Below are positions 1 through 57,383 of a stretch of DNA of 64,000 bases, piece after piece. The notes below the pieces were generated by a model. The model made no database searches. It worked only from the letters and a program-made list of their open reading frames with translations, and had not been told where the DNA came from. The position numbers and the translations under genes are program-made. Origin of the DNA: Patellaria atrata CBS 101060 (Eukaryota > Ascomycota > Dothideomycetes > Patellariales > Patellariaceae); the NCBI GenBank assembly GCA_010093705.1, contig MU006090.1:1639817-1703816 (forward strand). The letters are read 5' to 3'. Positions within the stretch are counted from its first letter, which is position 1. Each line of letters begins with the position of its first letter.

Positions 1-41
1 GCATTAGCTGAGTGGTGGTAATTTTCCTTTGTCATATTTCC

Positions 42-285
42 TTCAGTCAATTTTCTATCAGTCAATTTTCTATCAGTCAATTTTCTATCAGTCAATTTTC
101 TATCAGTCAANNNNNNNNNNNNNNNNNNNNNNNNNNNNNNNNNNNNNNNNNNNNNNNNNNNNNNNNNNNNNNNNNNNNNNNNNNNNNNNNNNNNNNNNNN
201 NNNNNNNNNNTCAGTCAATTTTCTATCAGTCAATTTTCTATCAGTCAATTTTCTATCAGTCAATTTTCTATCAGTCAACTTTCTA
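42..285. repeat. 15-bp minisatellite interrupted by an N gap
   Basis: Near-perfect head-to-tail copies of the 15-base unit TTTTCTATCAGTCAA run from about 42 to 110 and resume at 211 to about 285. Positions 111-210 are N, an assembly gap of nominal 100 bases, so the true array length is unknown. Because 15 is a multiple of three and the unit has no stop in some frames, the array stays open in two forward frames, but there is no sign of a real protein. Confidence 0.95.
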
Positions 286-360
286 AGCCCTTAATTCGAG
301 CCCTGGGTCCACCAAAATATAAGGTTAAATGCGTTTGCCGGGTTAACTTTCCCTCCAAGG

Positions 361-475
361 GGGTTTTCTTTTGTTTTTTTTTTTTCCCTTTTTTCTATTT
401 TTTTTTCCTATTTTATTTTTCCTATTTTTTTCTTCCTATTGTTTTTTTCCTATTTTTTTTTCCTAATTTTTAAAG
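361..475. repeat. T-rich tract with an irregular 12-13 base period
   Basis: This is a run of T interrupted by CCTA about every 12-13 bases (core TTTTTCCTATTT). It looks like a degenerate short tandem repeat. The stretch from 476 to 989 shows no convincing gene. A 93-codon open frame at 689-970 has no recognisable features and probably belongs to the leader or promoter of the HMG-box gene that starts at 990. Confidence 0.7.
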
Positions 476-36712: not shown

Positions 36713-37794
36713 TTACGGGAGACATTGGCCTGAGAATGAGTCAGTCATACTGTGCACAAGGTTATACGAGAAAAAGGGTGACTTACTGTAGTATTGGCTG
36801 CTAACTTTGCAAGTACCCGAAGCGCAAGTAGTAGGTCCCGTCCAGCCATCACCACCGCACTGAGCATACAGCGCCGCAGTACCTTGAGAAGAACCACCGG
36901 AGGTAGGAGGTTGCGGCTGCTGGGAGCCGGAGTCAGAGCCACCGCTGTTAGCACCGCACTGGAAGAGCGGGGGTCCCGGGATCTGGTACGCCTTGCCGCC
37001 ATTATCGGGCTGGCCGGTGGTACCGTAGATGGAGATCTGGATGCCGGGGTGGTTGGACTGGTACGCGCCCGGGAAACTGACGGTGTTGGAGGGGGTGGAG
37101 GTACCGCTACCCTGCACGTTGATCTGGGCGCACTCCATGTAGAACTGCGCGCCGTTGGCGGAGTAGGCGTTGTGGAGCGCGATCAGCTCGACGCGCATGA
37201 GGTAGTTGCCCGGCGCGATACAAGAGGGCATGGTGAAGTAGTTCCAGCCGTCGTTTGCGATCATGCGGTCGACGGCCCACTTGCCGCCCGAGAGGCCGTC
37301 TTCGGAAATCTTGAACCATTTCAGACCTGTGGTGCCGGTCGTCGCGGCGTTGTCGACTTTGGCGAGGTAGACAATGATGGGACCTTTGTGAGAGGCGGCG
37401 ATGGGATGATCAGGGTCGTTGGCGCCTTGCTTGCCGCCGATAACATGGCCCCACCATGCGCCGACTTTGGCACCGGCGGGGATGTTGATGATGGTGCTGT
37501 CTTTGTGGTTGATGTTCTTGTTGCAGGCGAATGAACCGTCGTTCACGTTCTCGATGGGCTGTATATGGTAAGTCTATGGGCATAAATCATGAGAGGGCGA
37601 AACGTACGTAGTCAGAATCTGGGGCGCGAACGCCTTTGAGCTGGCCTTGGTCTACACCATTCACGGATACTTTCTATTTTCGAGTTATTACAAGACGTCT
37701 ATAAGAGGGACATGGTCCAAAATACCTGGAAGATGGTATGAGCTTGAACTGCTGCAGCAGAGATAGCTAAAGAAGCGAATGTAGAGAACTTCAT
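36713..37794 (-). CDS. AA9 lytic polysaccharide monooxygenase with CBM1
   Basis: Exons 37794-37726, 37673-37608, 37558-36787 and 36729-36713 (17 nt) give 307 residues. The signal peptide is [18 protein letters not shown], with cleavage leaving His19 as the first mature residue (HTIFQ), the N-terminal half of the copper His-brace. The second His is in [12 protein letters not shown], and the axial Tyr is in [27 protein letters not shown] is a family block. A Ser/Gly/Gln-rich linker (about 235-260) leads to a CBM1 ([15 protein letters not shown], then YYSQCLP), whose last residues need the final 17-nt exon. It oxidatively cleaves cellulose or related glucans outside the cell. Confidence 0.95.
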
Positions 37795-48240: not shown

Positions 48241-50632
48241 ATGGACACGGAACTCATCAGAGGAGACTATAAACAGTACAAAAGCGATACAGAATTTGTT
48301 GCATGGTGGCTCGCAACTACCGCGAAGGAATATGGTTTTAAGTCTGAGAATGCAAGCCTGGATCCATGCTGGCGCTCGAACGTCAAGTTGAACTCCTACC
48401 TCATCGCGATTAGGGACTTTATTCCCTTAGCGCAATATATCAAAGGGCACTACGAAACAAACATTCCCTCAGCATTTCGCAACGCCCTCGATCGAGCTAT
48501 TAGACTACGGAAGCGCTTCCACGTATGGTTTCGTAATAGACCTCGAAAGGACAACAAATCCACCGAAGGTGCTTCGGACAAGAGTCATCGCCATTTCGTC
48601 GAGGTTCTCGAACGGGTGAGAGATATACTCTTGTACCAACCGCCCCAAGAAAGGGTGCAAGGATATTCGACGCTGTCTGAAGAGATCGTACAAAACGGCA
48701 TGGGCAATCTTCCCGCTAATATCTTCGACTTACTCACTCTCGAGGAACCAACTGAGGAATCTGCACGCACAAAAAAGGCCGCAACAATTCAATCTTCTAA
48801 GAGTACAGTATCTATTGAATATTCTTTTGAAGAAGTTCAAGACGATGAAGATGAAATGACACTGGCTCTATTCCTACTATTTTCTGAGACAGACTGTATT
48901 CGGAGTGCGATATGTGGCACCTGGTCCCGCTACCATAAGGGAGAAATTGATGTTATAGCAGCCTCGCTAGCAACCGAAACGGGTATATGGGCAGTACGAG
49001 ACATGGAACAGCAGTTCCCAGAGCTCTATCCCAGGTTCGACGATATCGAATCCTTGATCCTCGGCATATGCAACGTACAGTGCGAAAAAACAGGAGCAGC
49101 TCCCGTTGTAACAGATGTAGGAATCGAGGAAACCTCACCGGTGATATACGAAATCAAAGAAAAGTCCTTCTATTTGCCGTGGAGGGTGCTGAGTTTATCG
49201 TTTCAAAGCGCCGAATATTCTACATTACTGCAAATGGGTAGCTATTTCTTATGCGAATATGATTCATCCAAGGATCTTGAAACACTGTCGATGGTAGAAA
49301 AGCAGGAGGAGGACATACGTATCCTTGACGGGATCTTAAGAGTACTTTATACTGCTTACAGTATGTGCCTTGACGATCCCAAAAATCCTCCTCTAACCGC
49401 TGAGGATGCGCTCGTTCGATTGTTCCGGGATGCATACGGGACGGGAAAGACCACCCTGGCGGTAGTCTTCGCTATGCAAGTCTACCTTGATATACACCAT
49501 GAAATGAGAAACGATGTCTCAAAAGGATACGTCGATCTTCGCAAGACAGCAAATGCTGTGAAGACCACAATAAATCAGACCGCCAATCTTCACGCCACAC
49601 TAGGCGCTCGGGTTTGGATTACACGAGAGAATGAAATGTTCTCCTACCTTATAACGCTCATTGAAACAGTAGCTGGAGCAGAGCTCCCTTCAGAAATTCC
49701 AACAGGACTGGTGAGTTGCGGTGTATCCATTTATACATTATCTTTAGAGAGCCGGAGAGCCAGAAAGTTGGAGAAACCTAACGATTAGTTTAATAGCGCT
49801 CTACTATTATATCTAGTTACTAACCTGCTTTTAGGAGCATGAACCGCTCAGCTGGTTGCTCGAGGTACTCACAAACCACCCGTGGCAATGTGGACTGATA
49901 CGATATTGTCTCCAAATGAACGTGCAGGAAGTTGGTCTGAGGATAGCTTCTACCTGGGGTTCGATCATTTTCAGTGCCCATCTTTACAACGCAGTCCGTC
50001 AAGAACAGATTCTGGAAGAGAGATGGAAAGATATGGACACCCTCATGGTGATACACGGGCAGAACGCATTCTTTCCTGGTGGTGTCCCTAAAACTCCACC
50101 TGATTATGTCAAACGGTGCGGGTTAAAGATGGGCGTGTCTTTGGCCAACTGGGCCCCCAATCGAAGAGATAACGGACTTACTATAACACAATCGCAACTT
50201 AAGGGCCTAGAACAAGTCTCTCCGGTGAGCCGGATCTTTAAAGAACGATACTGTGAGGGGAAACACTGTCCGAATCTGTCCGAGAAAGAAATTGAGACTG
50301 TGTTATCGAAGGGTTCTACAAATGCTGTTTTGAGTTGCTGGCGTAATAAGGAGATGGTTGACGAGCATACTGTCCTAAATTCTCTCTGCGATGCTATCCA
50401 GACTGAGTTGTTTGAGATATATTTTGACTATCTGAGCATGCACCGGACTTGTATGGTCATGTTACGCCAGGTCAGAACATCTTTCTATTCTAACGGTAAT
50501 CAATCCGGTATTTCTACCGGCGCAGGCTCAAGAGTAGACGATAGAGAATTTGCCATTGTAGTTTACGAAATTTTACGAACAGGAAGCCTGCAGAACGGGG
50601 TCGGAACCTGTATACAAGAAATCAAGGCCTAG
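48241..50632 (+). CDS. DUF6604-type protein, probably truncated by an in-frame stop
   Basis: Exons 48241-49710 and 49835-50632 give 755 residues. The N-terminus (YKSDTEFVAWWLATTAKEYG) has the fungal DUF6604 pattern of Tyr-Lys-x-Asp-Thr and a Trp-Leu-Ala-x-Thr-Ala helix. Function is unknown. The reading frame ends at TAG (50630-50632), yet continues openly to a second TAG at 50807-50809. The continuation (FSMEQWLGLERHLESRPLEE, KILGRN, LKAKYGLDVEE) reads like the normal C-terminus of this family. So the stop is probably a recent mutation, a sequencing error, or a read-through site. GTGKTT at about 401-406 resembles a P-loop but lacks the full GxxxxGK[ST] context. It shares a neighbourhood with the gasdermin-like and CHAT-NTPase genes. 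Confidence 0.7.
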
Positions 50633-50978
50633 GGGGGACGACCTTTCAGTATGGAACAGTGGCTTGGATTGGAACGACACCTGGAGTCTCGGCCGCTGGA
50701 AGAATCTAGCAAAATCCTCGGAAGGAATCTTAAGTCTGGATTAGGGGAGCTAGAGGTCAGGGTATTGAAAGCCAAATACGGGCTTGATGTCGAGGAGCGG
50801 CCGAAGTAGTATTGACTGCGTCAGACGGTCGCAGACTGAGCTATATGCTTTTGCTGAATTAATTCTAGTACGATGCTCCAATACGTCTGAAACTAGTTTC
50901 GCATACTGAGCGAATTACTGTTCTTGATAACGTAGTTAGGATAGTATATTATAGACTGATAAACTTAAGTACAGTACA

Positions 50979-51854
50979 TCACACCAGTTCGAAACATCTC
51001 ACATCACTCTGCTGATCCTCGTCGTCTACAATCTGAATGTGAACACCACTTTCTCCCTCGTCGGAACTCACCTCGATCTCCTCATCGCTCTCCCCACTGA
51101 ATGCCCGATGGTACGCTTTTGCTCTCTTCGCTTGACCAACTTTCGCAGTCTTCTTGACGAACCTTGGGGCTGATCTATCAAAGGTGCGGTCTATTTCCAC
51201 AGGACAGTATGCCACTGCAAATATTTCTTCTTCGACAACCTGCATTGTACGCTCATGCTTTATTCCAGTGGTGATAGAAGGGTTGATGCTAGGATCCAAA
51301 AGGCCGGGTAATGGTACAGCAGACAAAACAGATAAAGGCGCCGTGACTGAGAACCCGGTCGTACGAGTTTCATCATTCCTTAGTCTCCATACTGTGCCAG
51401 TCGTTGTAAGAAATCCGATAACAAGATAAGCACGGCCATGATTTTGAAGTATCTTAGTTACGTCTTCGGCATATTGCGTATTGGTCATTAACTTTTCAAA
51501 GTACATTTCGGGATTGTTCAATGTATAACGTTTGACCTGCTGACTCTCCAATCCAGTGTGATTGTCGTGCCCTCGAGCGAAATCGAGTCCGAAGAAAGCT
51601 GTAAGTCCAAATGAGATACCCTTCTCTCTTACAAATTCTAAAATCTCTTTGCGAGTAGTTGATGACGATGGTGCGGGAAGAATATTCGGTATTATGTCGT
51701 CAGTGTGGTGGGAAACGTCCGATGGCGATAATGATTGAAAGGGGGCAAATTTATGAAGAGGAAGATATTTGTCCACTACAACACGGCACATCATATGCTT
51801 AATCTCAGTCGCTGGACATGTTTCATCGAGGAGGAAGAACCTGCGTCGACTCAT
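50979..51854 (-). CDS. Gasdermin-like candidate (fungal pore-forming cell-death protein)
   Basis: A single exon encodes 291 residues. I did not recognise it by a strict signature; the call rests on pattern and position. The start MSRRRFFLLDETCPATE, then CRVVVDKYLPLHKFAPF, resembles the first strands of gasdermin N-domains. VTKILQNHGRAYLVIGFLTT sits where gasdermins have the VYVVTE-like strand. A loop and two strands ending EEEIFAVAYCPVEI complete a domain of about 225 residues. A basic linker (KKTAKVGQAKRAKAYHR) and an acidic tail of about 40 residues follow. In the known fungal gasdermin HET-Q1, protease removal of a short C-terminal tail activates the pore. It is transcribed divergently from a CHAT-protease NLR-like gene. 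An alternative is an unrelated fungal protein of unknown function. Confidence 0.5.
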   Translation of the reverse strand: MSRRRFFLLDETCPATEIKHMMCRVVVDKYLPLHKFAPFQSLSPSDVSHHTDDIIPNILPAPSSSTTRKEILEFVREKGISFGLTAFFGLDFARGHDNHTGLESQQVKRYTLNNPEMYFEKLMTNTQYAEDVTKILQNHGRAYLVIGFLTTTGTVWRLRNDETRTTGFSVTAPLSVLSAVPLPGLLDPSINPSITTGIKHERTMQVVEEEIFAVAYCPVEIDRTFDRSAPRFVKKTAKVGQAKRAKAYHRAFSGESDEEIEVSSDEGESGVHIQIVDDEDQQSDVRCFELV

Positions 51855-52286
51855 TATGATTCGCGGTTCGAAATCCCACGTTTGACGACCGCTTTAATGT
51901 AGGTATGCTCTTTCTGTTAGATACTTGCGCTTGGAAGTACCGTAGAAATCTTTTGTACAGTACAGGAGGCAGGTGAAAGACTTTTTTTTCATATTATATA
52001 GGAATTGTCCCAGCCTTGTTGCCTAAGGGCGTCTTCATCCTCTAGACGGCTATTGCGAATGGTTTTGTGGCTGAGGGCTAGCCCATACTCCTACCTTTAG
52101 CGCGCTACGGCTGAGCGTCTGAGGGTTGATAAATGCGAAGAAGTTCCCCTAGAGGTAGCTGAGATGGAAGAAGTAATTCTCTTTGTATAACAGTCTCATT
52201 TCCAGGTCGATATGTAAAGTGAGGTACAAGTAAGGTATTGTCCATACCGAAAATCTTATCCAAATTCTCCCTAGTGCAGATCTAGA
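51855..52286. promoter_or_regulatory. Divergent promoter region of the gasdermin-like/CHAT pair
   Basis: 432 bp separate the two divergent start codons, so the two genes may share regulatory sites. No specific factor site was identified. Confidence 0.5.
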
Positions 52287-55200
52287 ATGTGCGCGGCACT
52301 CATGACGATCCCAGCGATCCAGCCCTTGCACGTCAGGCTCACTTTGCAAGCTCGGCATCAACCTTCATGGAACGACATCCCTACCAGACGGTGCTGGACG
52401 GTAGATGTTCTCGAAGGGAACGAGAAGGTAACGGAAGACTTGCAGCTTTCGGATCCTTTGAGTAAGGAGGAAGCGGCGACGTGCCGTTGGTATCTGGAAC
52501 AATATGTCCAGAGTTCCCCTTTCTCCATTTCTCAAGCTCGTGCCGCTGAAGCATTATTGAAGGGGTATCCGAAGAACATAATCAACCAACTGAATCTTAG
52601 AGAGATACTACAGTCACGAGCACCCTCTATCAATGGTCAGCCTACAGTTCTTTCACTGCTCATCAAAGAATCGATCAACAGCCCAGATGCCACTGTGCAT
52701 CAGCTTCATTGGGAAGCCCTCGAAGATCCAGAATGTTGGAATAACCCCAACCTTCGAGTCGAGGTCAAACGCGCCGCCCTCAACAAAGAGATACTCCAGA
52801 AGCCCTTAGCAAGGGTCAAAACCCGCCAGGATGAGCAAGGCGCTACCGGGACACTCAATATTCTTCTAGTTGTTGCGCGAGACACTTCTCACAATCCGGC
52901 TATTTATAGCGACGTAAATCCATTTCTTGTCTCCGATATCCTTTCACAGATACGAAAGAATCTCCGACAATCTGAACATGCCGTACGAATGAATGTAGAA
53001 ATTGTACGACCAGGGAGTTTAAAAAGTTTGGAAGAGCATCTTCAACGTGCTGAAGCTATTCACGGAACCAACTATTTCCACATCATCCATTTTGACCTCC
53101 ACGGTAAAGTAGGTCTGAGAAAGAAAGGTCCTACACGTGTCAAAAATGCTTTCCTTTATTTTTGCGATCCGCATTCTAACGCCACTAGAGCTGAAAGTGC
53201 CACCAAAGTTGGTAAGATCCTAAAAAGGCACTCCGTCCCATTGGTAGTTCTCAATGCATGCGAGTCTGCTAGGGCTAATTGTGGGGATGACGCAAACATT
53301 GCAAAGATCTTCGAACAGGAGGGTGTTCAAAAGGTTCTAGCAATGTCATTCAAGATTTCAAGTAGCGCAGCCAATTTATTTCTCTCCAAATTTTATAATG
53401 AGTTTCTCATAACCGGAACTTCATTTTCCAGAGCTGCGGCGGAGGCACGTAGCTTTCTTCGAACCTTCTCTATTAGACAAGCTCGTTTCGGGTTGGAGCT
53501 ACCCCTGAAAGATTGGTTTGTGCCGGTGATATACGGTTCTGACCACGACGTGGTGATACGCCAGGAGAAAACGCCAGGAGAAGATTCAGTGGACAGAGGG
53601 ATTGACAAACCTTTCGTTAGTACGGCTAAGCCCGATCTGTCAACGGATTCTACCCCTGTTGGACGTGAATTCGACATCTTGAGGATCGAGAAGTTGCTAT
53701 GTCAAAATCACACCCTTTATTTGCATGGGCCTCCAGGATCCGGAAAATCAGCCCTCATACGATACCTTGCCTCTGTCTGGAAGGAGACTTCCTTCGTAGA
53801 TGGATACGTCTACGTGGATTTCAAGAATATTAAGATCACTCAAGCAAATGACTTTATCGAAAATATTGCTAGCCAGCTAGTTGCTAGATTCCTGGCTTCC
53901 AACATGAATCTCTGGACGGTGAATACACTATCGGTTCAGTCTTACGACCACGAGTCCTTAAAGGACATTATCAAAAGTATCGTCAAAGAATATCGTGTTG
54001 CCATGATCTTTGATAACATTCAAGTATCCCACTCGAATATAGTCCCGATGTCTCTCGATGATGTATTGCTTACTGAAATCAATAATTTCTTGAGTCCCTT
54101 CTTAGATTCACCAGGTAGCAACCTGTCTGCCAATATAACGACTACCAAACCATTCGTCCTCTTCATAGGCCGCCGTTCGGATGTGCAGTGGATCTCGAAC
54201 ATAATTGGTTATGACTTTTTGAATCAACACTACAAAATCTCTGGACTAGAACTTCCAGATGCCATTGAATTAGCTCAATCAACTCTACGAGACGCAGGGG
54301 AGAACCTAGACGAGTGGCAACATGAAGATTTTAACACGCTTGAACTTGTTCTTGAGCTCCTTCAGAGAATACCTGACGCGATTCTCCAAGTCCTTCCCAT
54401 GGCTAGACGGTTGCGGATTCCGTGGCGTGAATTCCATCACCGCGTTCATACCCAGCTTATCTCATCAACGGAGGCCAGACGGGTGGTTGATGAGAACAAT
54501 GATTTCCACAAGGAATTCCGCAACTATGAAGAAATCTTACCCCATGTGATTTTCCCGTATTTTCTGCTTCTCGGCTTCTTTTGGCGCGAGGGTCCAATTG
54601 CAGCATCGCTAGTCGATGCTGTGATATCAATCGCAGAAAATATTGGTACTGATAGCGCAACCGAAGACCAAGTTAGAGAGGCTATTGAGACTGTCATCCG
54701 AGCCGCCATGCTATTCGCTCGTGACCGGGGGCTACTGGAGTATGACAACTCAGGAAGAATCAATTGGATACATCCATTATTTACCCTATACTCTAAAGGG
54801 CCACGGCTTGCACAATCCGACGAGGAATGTCCAGAAGACCATAAGAGGGATCAGTCTATCGCAGAGAAAGAAGTGGTCGAAGATGATTCCCCAACAAATT
54901 TTCAATCCATGAGCATAGCGTCAATTCTTCCTATTATTAAAACTATCGAAGAAAGGGCATATCTCCAATTCATGGTCAATGTCTACACTGGTAGTGACTA
55001 TAGTCAACTCCGTATTGACTATTCCGCTGCATTCCCGAACCTACTTACATGCATAAAGCATTGCATAGTTGCAGATGATATTATATCATTAAATGACTGG
55101 CCTATGACTCTTTTCACGCTTTTCGCCCCCCACATAAGGCTAGTAGGCACCACCACGGACTGCATACTTTTTGCAGACGCATATGAGCAACTACTGTCAG

Positions 55201-57383
55201 CATTTTTCCGATTAAACAAGGGCTATGCAGTGCCGGAAAAGTATCAAACCTTTGCCTTCAACGTTATCAATTACTTGACAGTTACCCATCGTGCTGAAGT
55301 CAAACTAATATCTGAGGATTCCCTCCGCTTCTCAAATATAGGAATGAGTATGATTGAGCAAACGGAGGCTAAGTACGGCCGGATAGTTGATCAATTTCAA
55401 AAGAGCCTTGTCTATCGCTACCGAACATTTATCTTCCTGGACAAAGGGATGCATTCAGAGGCTAGAGCATGCTGGCACAATATGACCACTATTGATGATG
55501 TGCTATTTGGTTCTGGTAAAGAGCGTCTCATCCCGCCAATGGAAAATCGTGAAGTCCTAAAAGAATCCATGCAAATGATTAACATACTTGCAAAAACTGA
55601 GGAAGAGAAAGCGGCGATGAAATCGCGACTTGATGCTAAACCCGGATATGCCGTTGGAGCAGCTTTCTATAAGAGTCGCAAAAAACTTGGCCACATTATT
55701 GATCTTCTGTGTGCTGGAGAGTCTCTGGAAGTGGATGGGCCCAACGGTTCAACTTATATTAAGTGGCTGAATGATCAGAGCCAAGAGCTCCAGAAAATTC
55801 ATGGTGTTACCGAAGCTGTTGGGATGAGAGGTCTCGAGATGGATGAGCGATGGTGGCCCGAAAATTTTGACATGGTCAAACAGCATACTACGCTCGAGGA
55901 TCCGTCACATCGACTCAGTGCTATAGAGGAAGCAAGAGACACAGGCAACTGGGCAGATGCCGCCGAGCAACATCAAGGTCTCTTACTCCGGGCGCTCCAG
56001 GAGGTTGACTTTGAAGAAGTCCTAGTTCACATCCGTTCTCTTATTGCAATATATCGAAGATCGCCTATCTTTGCTATGAAGATAAAAGAGATAATTGGCT
56101 TGCAGAAGTTCATAGAAGCTCTAGCACCTTTATATGAGAATTTCGTTCAACTACTCGAAAATCGAACTGAGAAAGCTGTAGAGGAGAACCTTCGTCTTAG
56201 TGACCGCCTCGTCCATGTCATTAGAGAGGTCAATCCCTCGGAAGAGAATTTACAAATAACGGACGGCTTTCAAGATTTGTGGAAAAGGTCATTGCAAGGA
56301 CCAGCCTCGATTAGGTTTACCAAAGAATGGCTGCAAGAGACGTTCCGGAAACATCTCAGAAATTTGAGGAAACCTGGGTATCAGAACCGTGTCATTGAAA
56401 TGGCTCTTCGGTTCAAAGATATTTATCGTCGTATGATTGCTGCTGAAGATGCTCACGATTATGAGACTTGCCTTGAAGTACTAGACTACATGGATGAACT
56501 TACTGATGGTGAATTAGAGAGTGACTTTTTCACCAGAGAAGAGGTTGAACGAGATCGAGAAATGTATAAATGGAAACGGGATTACTGGGCTCTATCGGAC
56601 GGACTAGGTGATGCTATTGTGGAAAACGAATTTGATATTGCTCGAGAATGTCTGCGAGGCATGAAAGATCTCCTGTGCGCAAGGGACGTCTCCTTGAGCC
56701 AAGAAAAGGGCCTATACGACCTATACGAACTCATTGAGAGAATGCACTGGAATCATGAGTGGCAGAAGGTCATTTCGGCAACGAAAGAACACAGATGGAG
56801 GGATGCTGTTAGAATCTGTAGTACGCTAGAAATGCTCTCTCAAGACGGCCTCTTCGATCACCTCAAAAACGATCCTTTCAGAACAGCCAAATCTACCCGT
56901 CTTATGGCACTATATCAACAGTCAGATGCCGGAAAAGACTGGGACTCTTGTCTTAAGTATTGCGATGATTGGGTTGAACTCAATGCAGACAAACTTAAGG
57001 ATAACCCCCGAGCCCACGACCTTGTTATCAGCATGCACGAGACCGCTGAGATGGAGAAATACAACACGGTTGCGCTAGTGCTGGATCAACAGTGCGAGTT
57101 TGAGCGTGCTCTTAAGCACTTTGAAATACTAGAGAAGATATTCCAACGCCAACAGCAGACACCAGAAGTCAAGAGGACGTCGGTGATATTGTTGCCTAAA
57201 GTCATAGCAGATATGCGAAGTCAGTTGGAATCGAAGGTCGCTATGATGCAATTGATGGGTCCAACCTTGGGAAAGCAATGGGTGTTGAGTGTAAGGGAAA
57301 AGATAGGGTATACACCTCAGTACAAACCCATGGACGAGTTGAAGAAGAATGCACATGAGAAACTGTTCGGTTCCGGCGTATGA
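52287..57383 (+). CDS. CHAT protease-NTPase (NLR-like STAND) protein
   Basis: A single exon encodes 1,698 residues. Residues 1-185 are a leader, ending in a WEALEDPECWN block typical of CHAT proteins. A CHAT (caspase-related) domain spans about 190-430. His in IIHFDLHGKVGL (about 266) and Cys in VVLNACESAR (about 324) are the expected catalytic pair, both intact. The link DSTPVGREFDILRIEKLL leads to an NB-ARC/AAA-like P-loop, LHGPPGSGKSAL (about 480), and a Walker B strand VAMIFDNI (about 571). After the NTPase and winged-helix-like region (to about 830), 850 residues of helical sequence with TPR-like spacing reach the end. In known fungal NLR-like proteins such repeats sense a trigger and the N-terminal domain acts. 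The divergent neighbour is the likely target. Confidence 0.85.
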   Translation: MCAALMTIPAIQPLHVRLTLQARHQPSWNDIPTRRCWTVDVLEGNEKVTEDLQLSDPLSKEEAATCRWYLEQYVQSSPFSISQARAAEALLKGYPKNIINQLNLREILQSRAPSINGQPTVLSLLIKESINSPDATVHQLHWEALEDPECWNNPNLRVEVKRAALNKEILQKPLARVKTRQDEQGATGTLNILLVVARDTSHNPAIYSDVNPFLVSDILSQIRKNLRQSEHAVRMNVEIVRPGSLKSLEEHLQRAEAIHGTNYFHIIHFDLHGKVGLRKKGPTRVKNAFLYFCDPHSNATRAESATKVGKILKRHSVPLVVLNACESARANCGDDANIAKIFEQEGVQKVLAMSFKISSSAANLFLSKFYNEFLITGTSFSRAAAEARSFLRTFSIRQARFGLELPLKDWFVPVIYGSDHDVVIRQEKTPGEDSVDRGIDKPFVSTAKPDLSTDSTPVGREFDILRIEKLLCQNHTLYLHGPPGSGKSALIRYLASVWKETSFVDGYVYVDFKNIKITQANDFIENIASQLVARFLASNMNLWTVNTLSVQSYDHESLKDIIKSIVKEYRVAMIFDNIQVSHSNIVPMSLDDVLLTEINNFLSPFLDSPGSNLSANITTTKPFVLFIGRRSDVQWISNIIGYDFLNQHYKISGLELPDAIELAQSTLRDAGENLDEWQHEDFNTLELVLELLQRIPDAILQVLPMARRLRIPWREFHHRVHTQLISSTEARRVVDENNDFHKEFRNYEEILPHVIFPYFLLLGFFWREGPIAASLVDAVISIAENIGTDSATEDQVREAIETVIRAAMLFARDRGLLEYDNSGRINWIHPLFTLYSKGPRLAQSDEECPEDHKRDQSIAEKEVVEDDSPTNFQSMSIASILPIIKTIEERAYLQFMVNVYTGSDYSQLRIDYSAAFPNLLTCIKHCIVADDIISLNDWPMTLFTLFAPHIRLVGTTTDCILFADAYEQLLSAFFRLNKGYAVPEKYQTFAFNVINYLTVTHRAEVKLISEDSLRFSNIGMSMIEQTEAKYGRIVDQFQKSLVYRYRTFIFLDKGMHSEARACWHNMTTIDDVLFGSGKERLIPPMENREVLKESMQMINILAKTEEEKAAMKSRLDAKPGYAVGAAFYKSRKKLGHIIDLLCAGESLEVDGPNGSTYIKWLNDQSQELQKIHGVTEAVGMRGLEMDERWWPENFDMVKQHTTLEDPSHRLSAIEEARDTGNWADAAEQHQGLLLRALQEVDFEEVLVHIRSLIAIYRRSPIFAMKIKEIIGLQKFIEALAPLYENFVQLLENRTEKAVEENLRLSDRLVHVIREVNPSEENLQITDGFQDLWKRSLQGPASIRFTKEWLQETFRKHLRNLRKPGYQNRVIEMALRFKDIYRRMIAAEDAHDYETCLEVLDYMDELTDGELESDFFTREEVERDREMYKWKRDYWALSDGLGDAIVENEFDIARECLRGMKDLLCARDVSLSQEKGLYDLYELIERMHWNHEWQKVISATKEHRWRDAVRICSTLEMLSQDGLFDHLKNDPFRTAKSTRLMALYQQSDAGKDWDSCLKYCDDWVELNADKLKDNPRAHDLVISMHETAEMEKYNTVALVLDQQCEFERALKHFEILEKIFQRQQQTPEVKRTSVILLPKVIADMRSQLESKVAMMQLMGPTLGKQWVLSVREKIGYTPQYKPMDELKKNAHEKLFGSGV

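What the first reader, a model, noticed from the sequence alone, without database searches (positions are those of the whole stretch)
50979..57383. Candidate gasdermin-CHAT/NLR cell-death pair
Seen: a 291-residue protein with a basic linker and acidic tail is divergent, by 432 bp, from a 1,698-residue protein with an intact CHAT His/Cys pair, a P-loop NTPase and a long repeat-like C-terminus. Known: some fungal gasdermins lie next to a protease gene (HET-Q1/HET-Q2), and bacterial gasdermins are cleaved by caspase-like proteases. Inferred: the CHAT protein senses a trigger and cuts the neighbour, causing lytic cell death or heterokaryon incompatibility.
Basis: partly seen in the sequence, partly recalled or inferred. 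Interest (0 to 1): 0.88.

Follow-up and report, generated by a model that had tools for sequence, protein, structure and literature searches.

The report
Fungal caspase-like receptor with gasdermin-like neighbour
A fungal chromosome carries a large immune-receptor-like protein with a built-in caspase-like protease next to a small orphan protein that is probably its pore-forming target, which would make it one more example of a known fungal cell-suicide gene pair, although the pore-former half could not be proven here.

Summary
In detail: a 291-codon ORF (50979-51854, minus) and a 1,698-codon ORF (52287-57383, plus) diverge across 432 bp and read as coding. The large protein has a Pfam CHAT domain (7.6e-15) and a STAND NTPase. 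His272, Cys325, G484, G486, K487 and D576 are identical in 16 of 16 aligned sequences. Foldseek lists plant NLRs, separase and Craspase TPR-CHAT at probability 1.00, with low TM-scores. Bacterial relatives share residues 131-760, not 761-1698.

The gasdermin identity of the small protein is neither shown nor excluded. It has no family match, its one-sequence AlphaFold model failed, and tests with a mammalian profile were negative; that profile listed no chain named as a fungal gasdermin either.

Layout and pairing fit published fungal gasdermin-CHAT clusters. Best reading: a new member of that class, 0.65. Side result: cyanobacterial CHAT-NTPase genes have their own recurrent neighbour, a hydrophobic protein of about 140 residues.

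The parts
50979..51854 (-). Candidate gasdermin-like executioner gene, one open frame, 291 aa
   Evidence: ORF longer than any in 200 simulated sequences; coding-frame codon use; no family match
51099..51164 (-). Basic linker, residues 231-252, where a protease cut is proposed; 39 residues remain after Phe252
   Evidence: charge profile, sequence; cut site is inference
51003..51098 (-). Acidic tail, residues 253-284, proposed inhibitory fragment
   Evidence: charge profile; function inferred from HET-Q1
51855..52286 (.). 432-bp divergent intergenic region, presumed shared promoter
   Evidence: shared regulation is inference
52287..57383 (+). CHAT protease-STAND NTPase receptor gene, one open frame, 1,698 aa
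52680..53459 (+). CHAT domain, residues 132-391
   Evidence: Pfam PF12770 E 7.6e-15; separase and Craspase TPR-CHAT among fold matches
53100..53102 (+). Catalytic His272
   Evidence: identical in 16 of 16; catalytic role by family
53259..53261 (+). Catalytic Cys325
   Evidence: identical in 16 of 16; catalytic role by family
53727..53750 (+). Walker A GPPGSGKS, residues 481-488
   Evidence: Pfam NPHP3_N 1.5e-7; G484, G486, K487 identical in 16 of 16
54012..54017 (+). Walker B Asp576-Asn577
   Evidence: identical in 16 of 16; label recalled
54174..54176 (+). Arg630, candidate sensor arginine
   Evidence: identical in 16 of 16; role recalled, not tested
54567..57380 (+). C-terminal region, residues 761-1698, without relatives among the bacterial loci tested; proposed sensor
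   Evidence: 0 phmmer hits at E up to 1 for 761-1200 and for 1201-1698; post-hoc motifs in 1201-1698

Best explanation
The two genes form one cell-death unit of the fungal gasdermin-protease type. The large protein is an NLR-like receptor. Its C-terminal half senses a trigger, its STAND ATPase switches and oligomerises, and the fused CHAT protease becomes active. It then cuts the small protein in its basic linker and releases the acidic C-terminal fragment of about 40 residues, so that the N-terminal part (about 240-250 residues) inserts into the plasma membrane and kills the cell. Shown: the two genes and their arrangement, the intact CHAT dyad, the NLR-type NTPase. Inferred: that the small protein is a gasdermin, that it is the substrate, where it is cut, the trigger, and any part in allorecognition.
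For: CHAT and NTPase domains above their Pfam cut-offs. Dyad and nucleotide-binding residues identical in 16 of 16. Fold matches to plant NLR resistosomes, separase and Craspase TPR-CHAT at Foldseek probability 1.00. The small protein's length (291 aa) and its layout of long N-part, basic linker and acidic tail resemble HET-Q1 (278 aa, loses about 40 residues at Phe238). Published surveys: about 80% of fungal gasdermin genes lie near a protease gene, 17-19% of these proteases CHAT or cysteine type, dozens in NLR-like proteins; a TPR-bearing CHAT protease activates the gasdermin of its cluster in Podospora. An Aspergillus fumigatus incompatibility gene encodes a 1,327-residue CHAT protein.
Against: No sequence evidence that the small protein is a gasdermin. 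hhalign to a two-sequence mammalian profile: probability 0.6, 16 columns in the wrong register, 5 of 200 shuffles as high. hmmsearch: 2.0 bits in the wrong register, reached by 112 of 3,148 scored shuffles (5,000 made) and 23 of 1,743 scored ORFs. Semi-global motif test: wrong register, reached by 378 of 2000 shuffles and 66 of 664 protein tiles. Adding the small protein to a 71-column profile brought in no further gasdermin; the same profile without it still listed two bacterial gasdermins and GSDMB at E 1.2-1.8. AlphaFold model unusable. No gasdermin detected in the bacterial CHAT loci. Cyanobacterial relatives pair with an unrelated small hydrophobic protein, so a CHAT-NTPase partner need not be a gasdermin.
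Confidence: 0.65

Rival explanations
1. The small protein is a partner of the CHAT receptor but not a gasdermin: another membrane-active effector, a guarded decoy, or a substrate whose cut releases a signal.
For: Same tight divergent pairing; no detectable similarity to gasdermins or any family. Cyanobacterial CHAT-NTPase genes have a recurrent non-gasdermin neighbour, a hydrophobic protein of about 140 residues. The A. fumigatus hetB idiomorph opposite the CHAT gene is a 149-residue protein without known domains. CHAT proteases elsewhere cut other substrates (recalled).
Against: In fungi the published neighbours of CHAT and S8 protease NLR genes are gasdermins; length and tail layout fit HET-Q1. 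The cyanobacterial family does not match the small protein (E 0.19).
Confidence: 0.2
2. The two genes are unrelated neighbours; the small gene is a lineage-specific orphan and the CHAT receptor acts elsewhere.
For: Every gene has some neighbour, and no fungal orthologues could be examined; no gasdermin was detected in the bacterial CHAT loci, by a weak profile.
Against: Divergent pairing with 432 bp between starts is a plausible arrangement for a two-gene cluster; the coding signal of the small ORF is real.
Confidence: 0.15

Closest known systems
Fungal gasdermin-CHAT two-gene clusters, including the Podospora anserina CHAT-TPR/gasdermin pair (Clave et al. 2022; seen only through reviews)
   Same: Large CHAT protease receptor, here with an NLR-like NTPase, next to a protein of gasdermin length with a short C-terminal tail
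   Different: Gasdermin identity of the small protein not shown here; long C-terminus without a recognised repeat family
HET-Q1/HET-Q2 of Podospora anserina
   Same: HET-Q1 is 278 aa with a roughly 40-residue removable tail; the small protein is 291 aa with a basic linker and acidic tail
   Different: HET-Q2 is a subtilisin-like serine protease of 388 aa, and the two genes are idiomorphs at one locus, not a divergent pair
Aspergillus fumigatus hetB (CHAT protein of 1,327 residues)
   Same: Large fungal CHAT protein; shows that a CHAT gene can act in incompatibility
   Different: Gasdermin involvement not established there; no polymorphism data here
Bacterial CHAT-NTPase proteins (e.g. on Tolypothrix, Nostoc and Calothrix plasmids)
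   Same: 22-27% identity over the aligned CHAT-NTPase part, same dyad and nucleotide-binding residues
   Different: No similarity found over residues 761-1698; no gasdermin found in their loci by a weak profile; in cyanobacteria a small hydrophobic protein recurs as neighbour

Membership tests
Gasdermin family (fungal gasdermins) | Sequence similarity to known gasdermins | tested here: inconclusive
   No match in Pfam, PADLOC, NCBIfam, PHROGs or PDB sequences; no support from a mammalian profile. That profile reached bacterial gasdermins 8sl0 and 7n51 (E 0.06-0.08) but no chain named as a fungal gasdermin, so a miss says little.
Gasdermin family (fungal gasdermins) | Gasdermin N-domain fold | tested here: inconclusive
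   AlphaFold on one sequence failed, pLDDT 29.8; no fold search was made on that model
Gasdermin family (fungal gasdermins) | Short removable C-terminal fragment | tested here: inconclusive
   Basic linker and acidic tail are present; cleavage untested
Gasdermin family (fungal gasdermins) | Membrane pore formation and killing | not testable with these tools
   needs expression
CHAT proteases | CHAT domain with His/Cys dyad | tested here: met
   PF12770 7.6e-15, 55.5 bits against a cut-off of 24; His272 and Cys325 in 16 of 16; separase and Craspase TPR-CHAT among fold matches
NLR/STAND receptors | Central STAND NTPase with Walker A and B | tested here: met
   NPHP3_N 32.2 bits against a cut-off of 24.8; G484, G486, K487, D576, N577 in 16 of 16; plant NLR fold matches
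NLR/STAND receptors | C-terminal superstructure-forming repeats | tested here: inconclusive
   No repeat family in Pfam; TPR consensus not supported; post-hoc motifs enriched
Fungal gasdermin-protease two-gene cluster (Q2L) | Protease gene within 10 kb of a gasdermin gene, conserved as a pair | tested here: inconclusive
   Adjacency met (432 bp); gasdermin identity and conservation of the pair not established
Heterokaryon incompatibility (het) locus | Polymorphism under balancing selection and an incompatibility reaction | not testable with these tools
   one genome window only

The most novel reading that the evidence does not exclude
One CHAT-NTPase receptor core is shared across kingdoms and is wired to different membrane killers: in cyanobacteria to an unnamed, hydrophobic protein of about 140 residues encoded nearby, in this fungus to a gasdermin or to a new executioner class, with a new sensor half. 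The caspase-like switch would be old and the executioner exchangeable.
Probability: 0.3. Interest if true: 0.65.

Novelty: new member of a known kind. Interest (0 to 1): 0.4.

Why it matters
If the pair is what it seems, it is a compact pyroptosis-like pathway with sensor, caspase-like protease and executioner in two adjacent genes. What fungal NLRs recognise is listed as an open question in a 2025 review (passage seen), and such a pair is a direct place to ask. The class itself is already published, so the locus adds an example. The link to bacterial CHAT-NTPase genes, and their recurrent small hydrophobic neighbour in cyanobacteria, may be the more testable new lead.

Tried and rejected
Family searches of the small protein, whole or in parts: Pfam, PADLOC, NCBIfam, PHROGs, PDB sequences, plasmids by tblastn, genome and viral contigs (these find close relatives only). 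Best rows, taken as chance: a cysteine hydrolase (E 1.7 and 0.61), a potassium channel (E 1.4), a PAS domain on a fragment (E 0.14). The large protein gave nothing in viral contigs. The window holds no second copy of the small gene (tblastn finds only itself).

AlphaFold on the small protein alone was unusable and was not searched by fold. Its low-confidence helix 116-139 followed by strands is the order I would expect of a gasdermin core (recalled); I give it no weight.

Gasdermin yardstick: a profile from GSDMA3 and GSDMD (A1, 108 columns) reached two bacterial gasdermins in the PDB but no chain named as a fungal gasdermin, so the negative tests with it are weak. By eye I aligned residues 108-174 to the helix-hairpin of GSDMD, and MAFFT gave the same (A4, 19% identity), but shuffles do not support it. 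With A4 the PDB search listed no bacterial gasdermin and caspase-8 chains as chance hits at E 0.07; its control without the small protein (A5, searched on rechecking) listed the bacterial ones at E 1.4 and 1.8. So most of the loss against one search comes from the shorter profile, and adding the small protein did not help.

A search of 388 cyanobacterial-order genomes with A1 for bacterial gasdermins as a bridge gave 58 genomes with matches at E 0.05-1, which I read as noise; 8 genomes of CHAT loci gave none. TPR repeats by consensus were rejected.
Full report
What is there. The window is from a filamentous fungus, to judge from its genes (PRMT5 in two ORFs, AA9 with a fungal cellulose-binding domain, GH79); no genome is held for it. 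The two ORFs of the finding are exact: 291 codons on the minus strand at 50979-51854 and 1,698 codons on the plus strand at 52287-57383, start codons 432 bp apart. In 200 simulated 12-kb sequences the longest ATG ORF was 206 codons. Codon use points to the annotated frame in both (the large gene was in the training set). Both have an in-frame stop closely upstream (14 codons for the small one, at 52272 for the large one), so the starts are plausible.

The large protein. Pfam finds CHAT at residues 132-391 (E 7.6e-15) and NPHP3_N, a STAND-type NTPase (label recalled), at 473-567 (E 1.5e-7), both above their cut-offs. A tblastn of a 250-residue stretch spanning CHAT and P-loop hit 11 of 72,556 plasmid records, 8 of them cyanobacterial, at 26.5-30.1% identity, best E 8e-22. 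In 20 of these 31 an ORF matches the CHAT-NTPase profile at E up to 1e-5; the other 11 (L027-L037) match only around the P-loop and were dropped. From the 20 I aligned 15 with residues 1-760 of the window protein and left out five with short or broken frames. His272, Cys325, G484, G486, K487, D576, N577 and R630 are identical in 16 of 16. One of the two search patterns contains the P-loop, so identity at G484, G486 and K487 is partly by selection; His272, Cys325, D576, N577 and R630 lie outside both patterns.

Fold. AlphaFold with that alignment gave pLDDT 65.7 and pTM 0.71 for residues 1-760. Foldseek against the PDB found 810 matches at E up to 10, 152 at E up to 0.001. Among the 50 rows shown are plant NLR resistosomes or NB-ARC domains (wheat G10 at rank 1, 6j6i, NRC1, NRC3, Sr35), separase (5fby, 5fc3, 5fc2) and Craspase TPR-CHAT (7zoq, 8d9h), all at probability 1.00, mixed with many AAA ATPases such as p97. 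TM-scores by query length are 0.24-0.32 for these rows and rmsd is 6-11 A, so the match is one of domains, not of the whole. I read it as a CHAT protease of the separase type followed by an NLR-type NTPase.

The C-terminal half. Against the 2,647 ORFs of the 37 loci then held, residues 131-420 and 421-760 each match 25 ORFs at E up to 1, residues 1-130 match 4 (best 0.0003), and residues 761-1200 and 1201-1698 match none. A TPR consensus is not supported; two motifs written after inspection are enriched. The simplest reading is a conserved protease-switch core with a replaced or fast-evolving sensor.

The small protein. Nothing credible matches it in Pfam, PADLOC, NCBIfam, PHROGs, PDB sequences, plasmids, or prokaryotic and viral contigs. 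Its structure could not be predicted from one sequence. To test the gasdermin idea I built a small profile from GSDMA3 and GSDMD. Against the PDB it reached two bacterial gasdermins at E 0.06-0.08, next to a chance hit at 0.14, and no chain named as a fungal gasdermin, although fungal RCD-1 structures are reported in the literature. The tests of the small protein with it were negative and in the wrong register, and adding the small protein to a shorter profile brought in no further gasdermin. Since the yardstick showed no known fungal gasdermin either, these results neither support nor exclude membership.

The bacterial relatives' own neighbour. Among 26 loci with a CHAT-NTPase ORF (L001-L026), 10, all cyanobacterial by record title, also hold a family of 135-158 residues. 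It lies about 20 bp to 3.8 kb from the CHAT ORF; in L002, L009 and L011 it is the immediate neighbour (32, 21 and 65 bp). Its C-terminal part is hydrophobic (best 19-residue Kyte-Doolittle mean 1.87-2.20) and two members have no credible Pfam match (best E 0.033). A search of 40 genomes of the order of one CHAT genome found 22 matches in 17 genomes, nine of them strong (above 160 bits). With up to 8 kb on each side, 6 of the 9 strong members have a CHAT-NTPase ORF nearby; one of these six is locus L010 itself, so 5 of 8 are independent. Of the 13 weak matches I fetched 11, and 1 of 11 has a weak CHAT ORF. In 15 control loci with shorter flanks none had one. I find no similarity of this family to the fungal small protein (E 0.19). 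It may be a membrane partner or executioner of these bacterial receptors; that is inference.

Context from the literature. I saw passages of PMC10197012 (and its section 15 in full), PMC12881547, PMC10989679, PMC9815663, PMC8742441, PMC12547243, PMC11138114, and the abstract and passages of PMC11760362; I read none as a whole. They state that about 1,900 fungal gasdermin genes were found in 400 genomes, about 80% near a protease gene, 17-19% CHAT or cysteine proteases, with dozens of NLR-like CHAT proteins; that a TPR-bearing CHAT protease activates a gasdermin in a Podospora cluster; that HET-Q1 (278 aa) loses about 40 residues at Phe238; and that a CHAT gene of 1,327 residues is an incompatibility gene in Aspergillus fumigatus. 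One of them (PMC8742441) holds that fungal RCD-1 proteins are analogues rather than members of the gasdermin family. The primary papers (Clave 2022, Daskalov 2020) are not held.

Judgement. The receptor is real and of a known kind. The neighbour has the length, tail and position expected of its gasdermin. Its tail after Phe252 is 39 residues, close to the 40 of HET-Q1, but a CHAT protease need not cut there. I put 0.65 on a gasdermin-CHAT-NLR cell-death pair, 0.20 on a different executioner or substrate, and 0.15 on unrelated neighbours. Heterokaryon incompatibility is only one possible use and has no evidence here.

Noticed in passing
L002 9594-10115, L009 5173-5634, L011 5126-5578 and seven other cyanobacterial CHAT loci: A family of 135-158 residues with a hydrophobic C-terminal part recurs in 10 of 26 CHAT-NTPase loci; from its own side 6 of 9 strong members (5 of 8 independent) have a CHAT-NTPase ORF within 8 kb.
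   Followed up: partly
window 48241-50809, plus strand: A DUF6604 gene (Pfam E 1.6e-55), apparently three exons with introns near 49711-49834 and 50610-50649 by eye, convergent with the small gene. The term DUF6604 was in no paper of the held library.
   Followed up: partly
L001 5386-9249, L002 5389-9564, L004 5338-9219: Cyanobacterial plasmids carry CHAT-NTPase genes about 0.9-1 kb from a phage-type or site-specific integrase.
   Followed up: no
window 12-473: Tandem SQFSI-type coding repeat around a run of unread bases (100 N in the window) at the left edge.
   Followed up: no
window 36713-37546, minus strand: AA9 lytic polysaccharide monooxygenase with CBM1, suggesting a fungus that degrades plant matter.
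   Followed up: no
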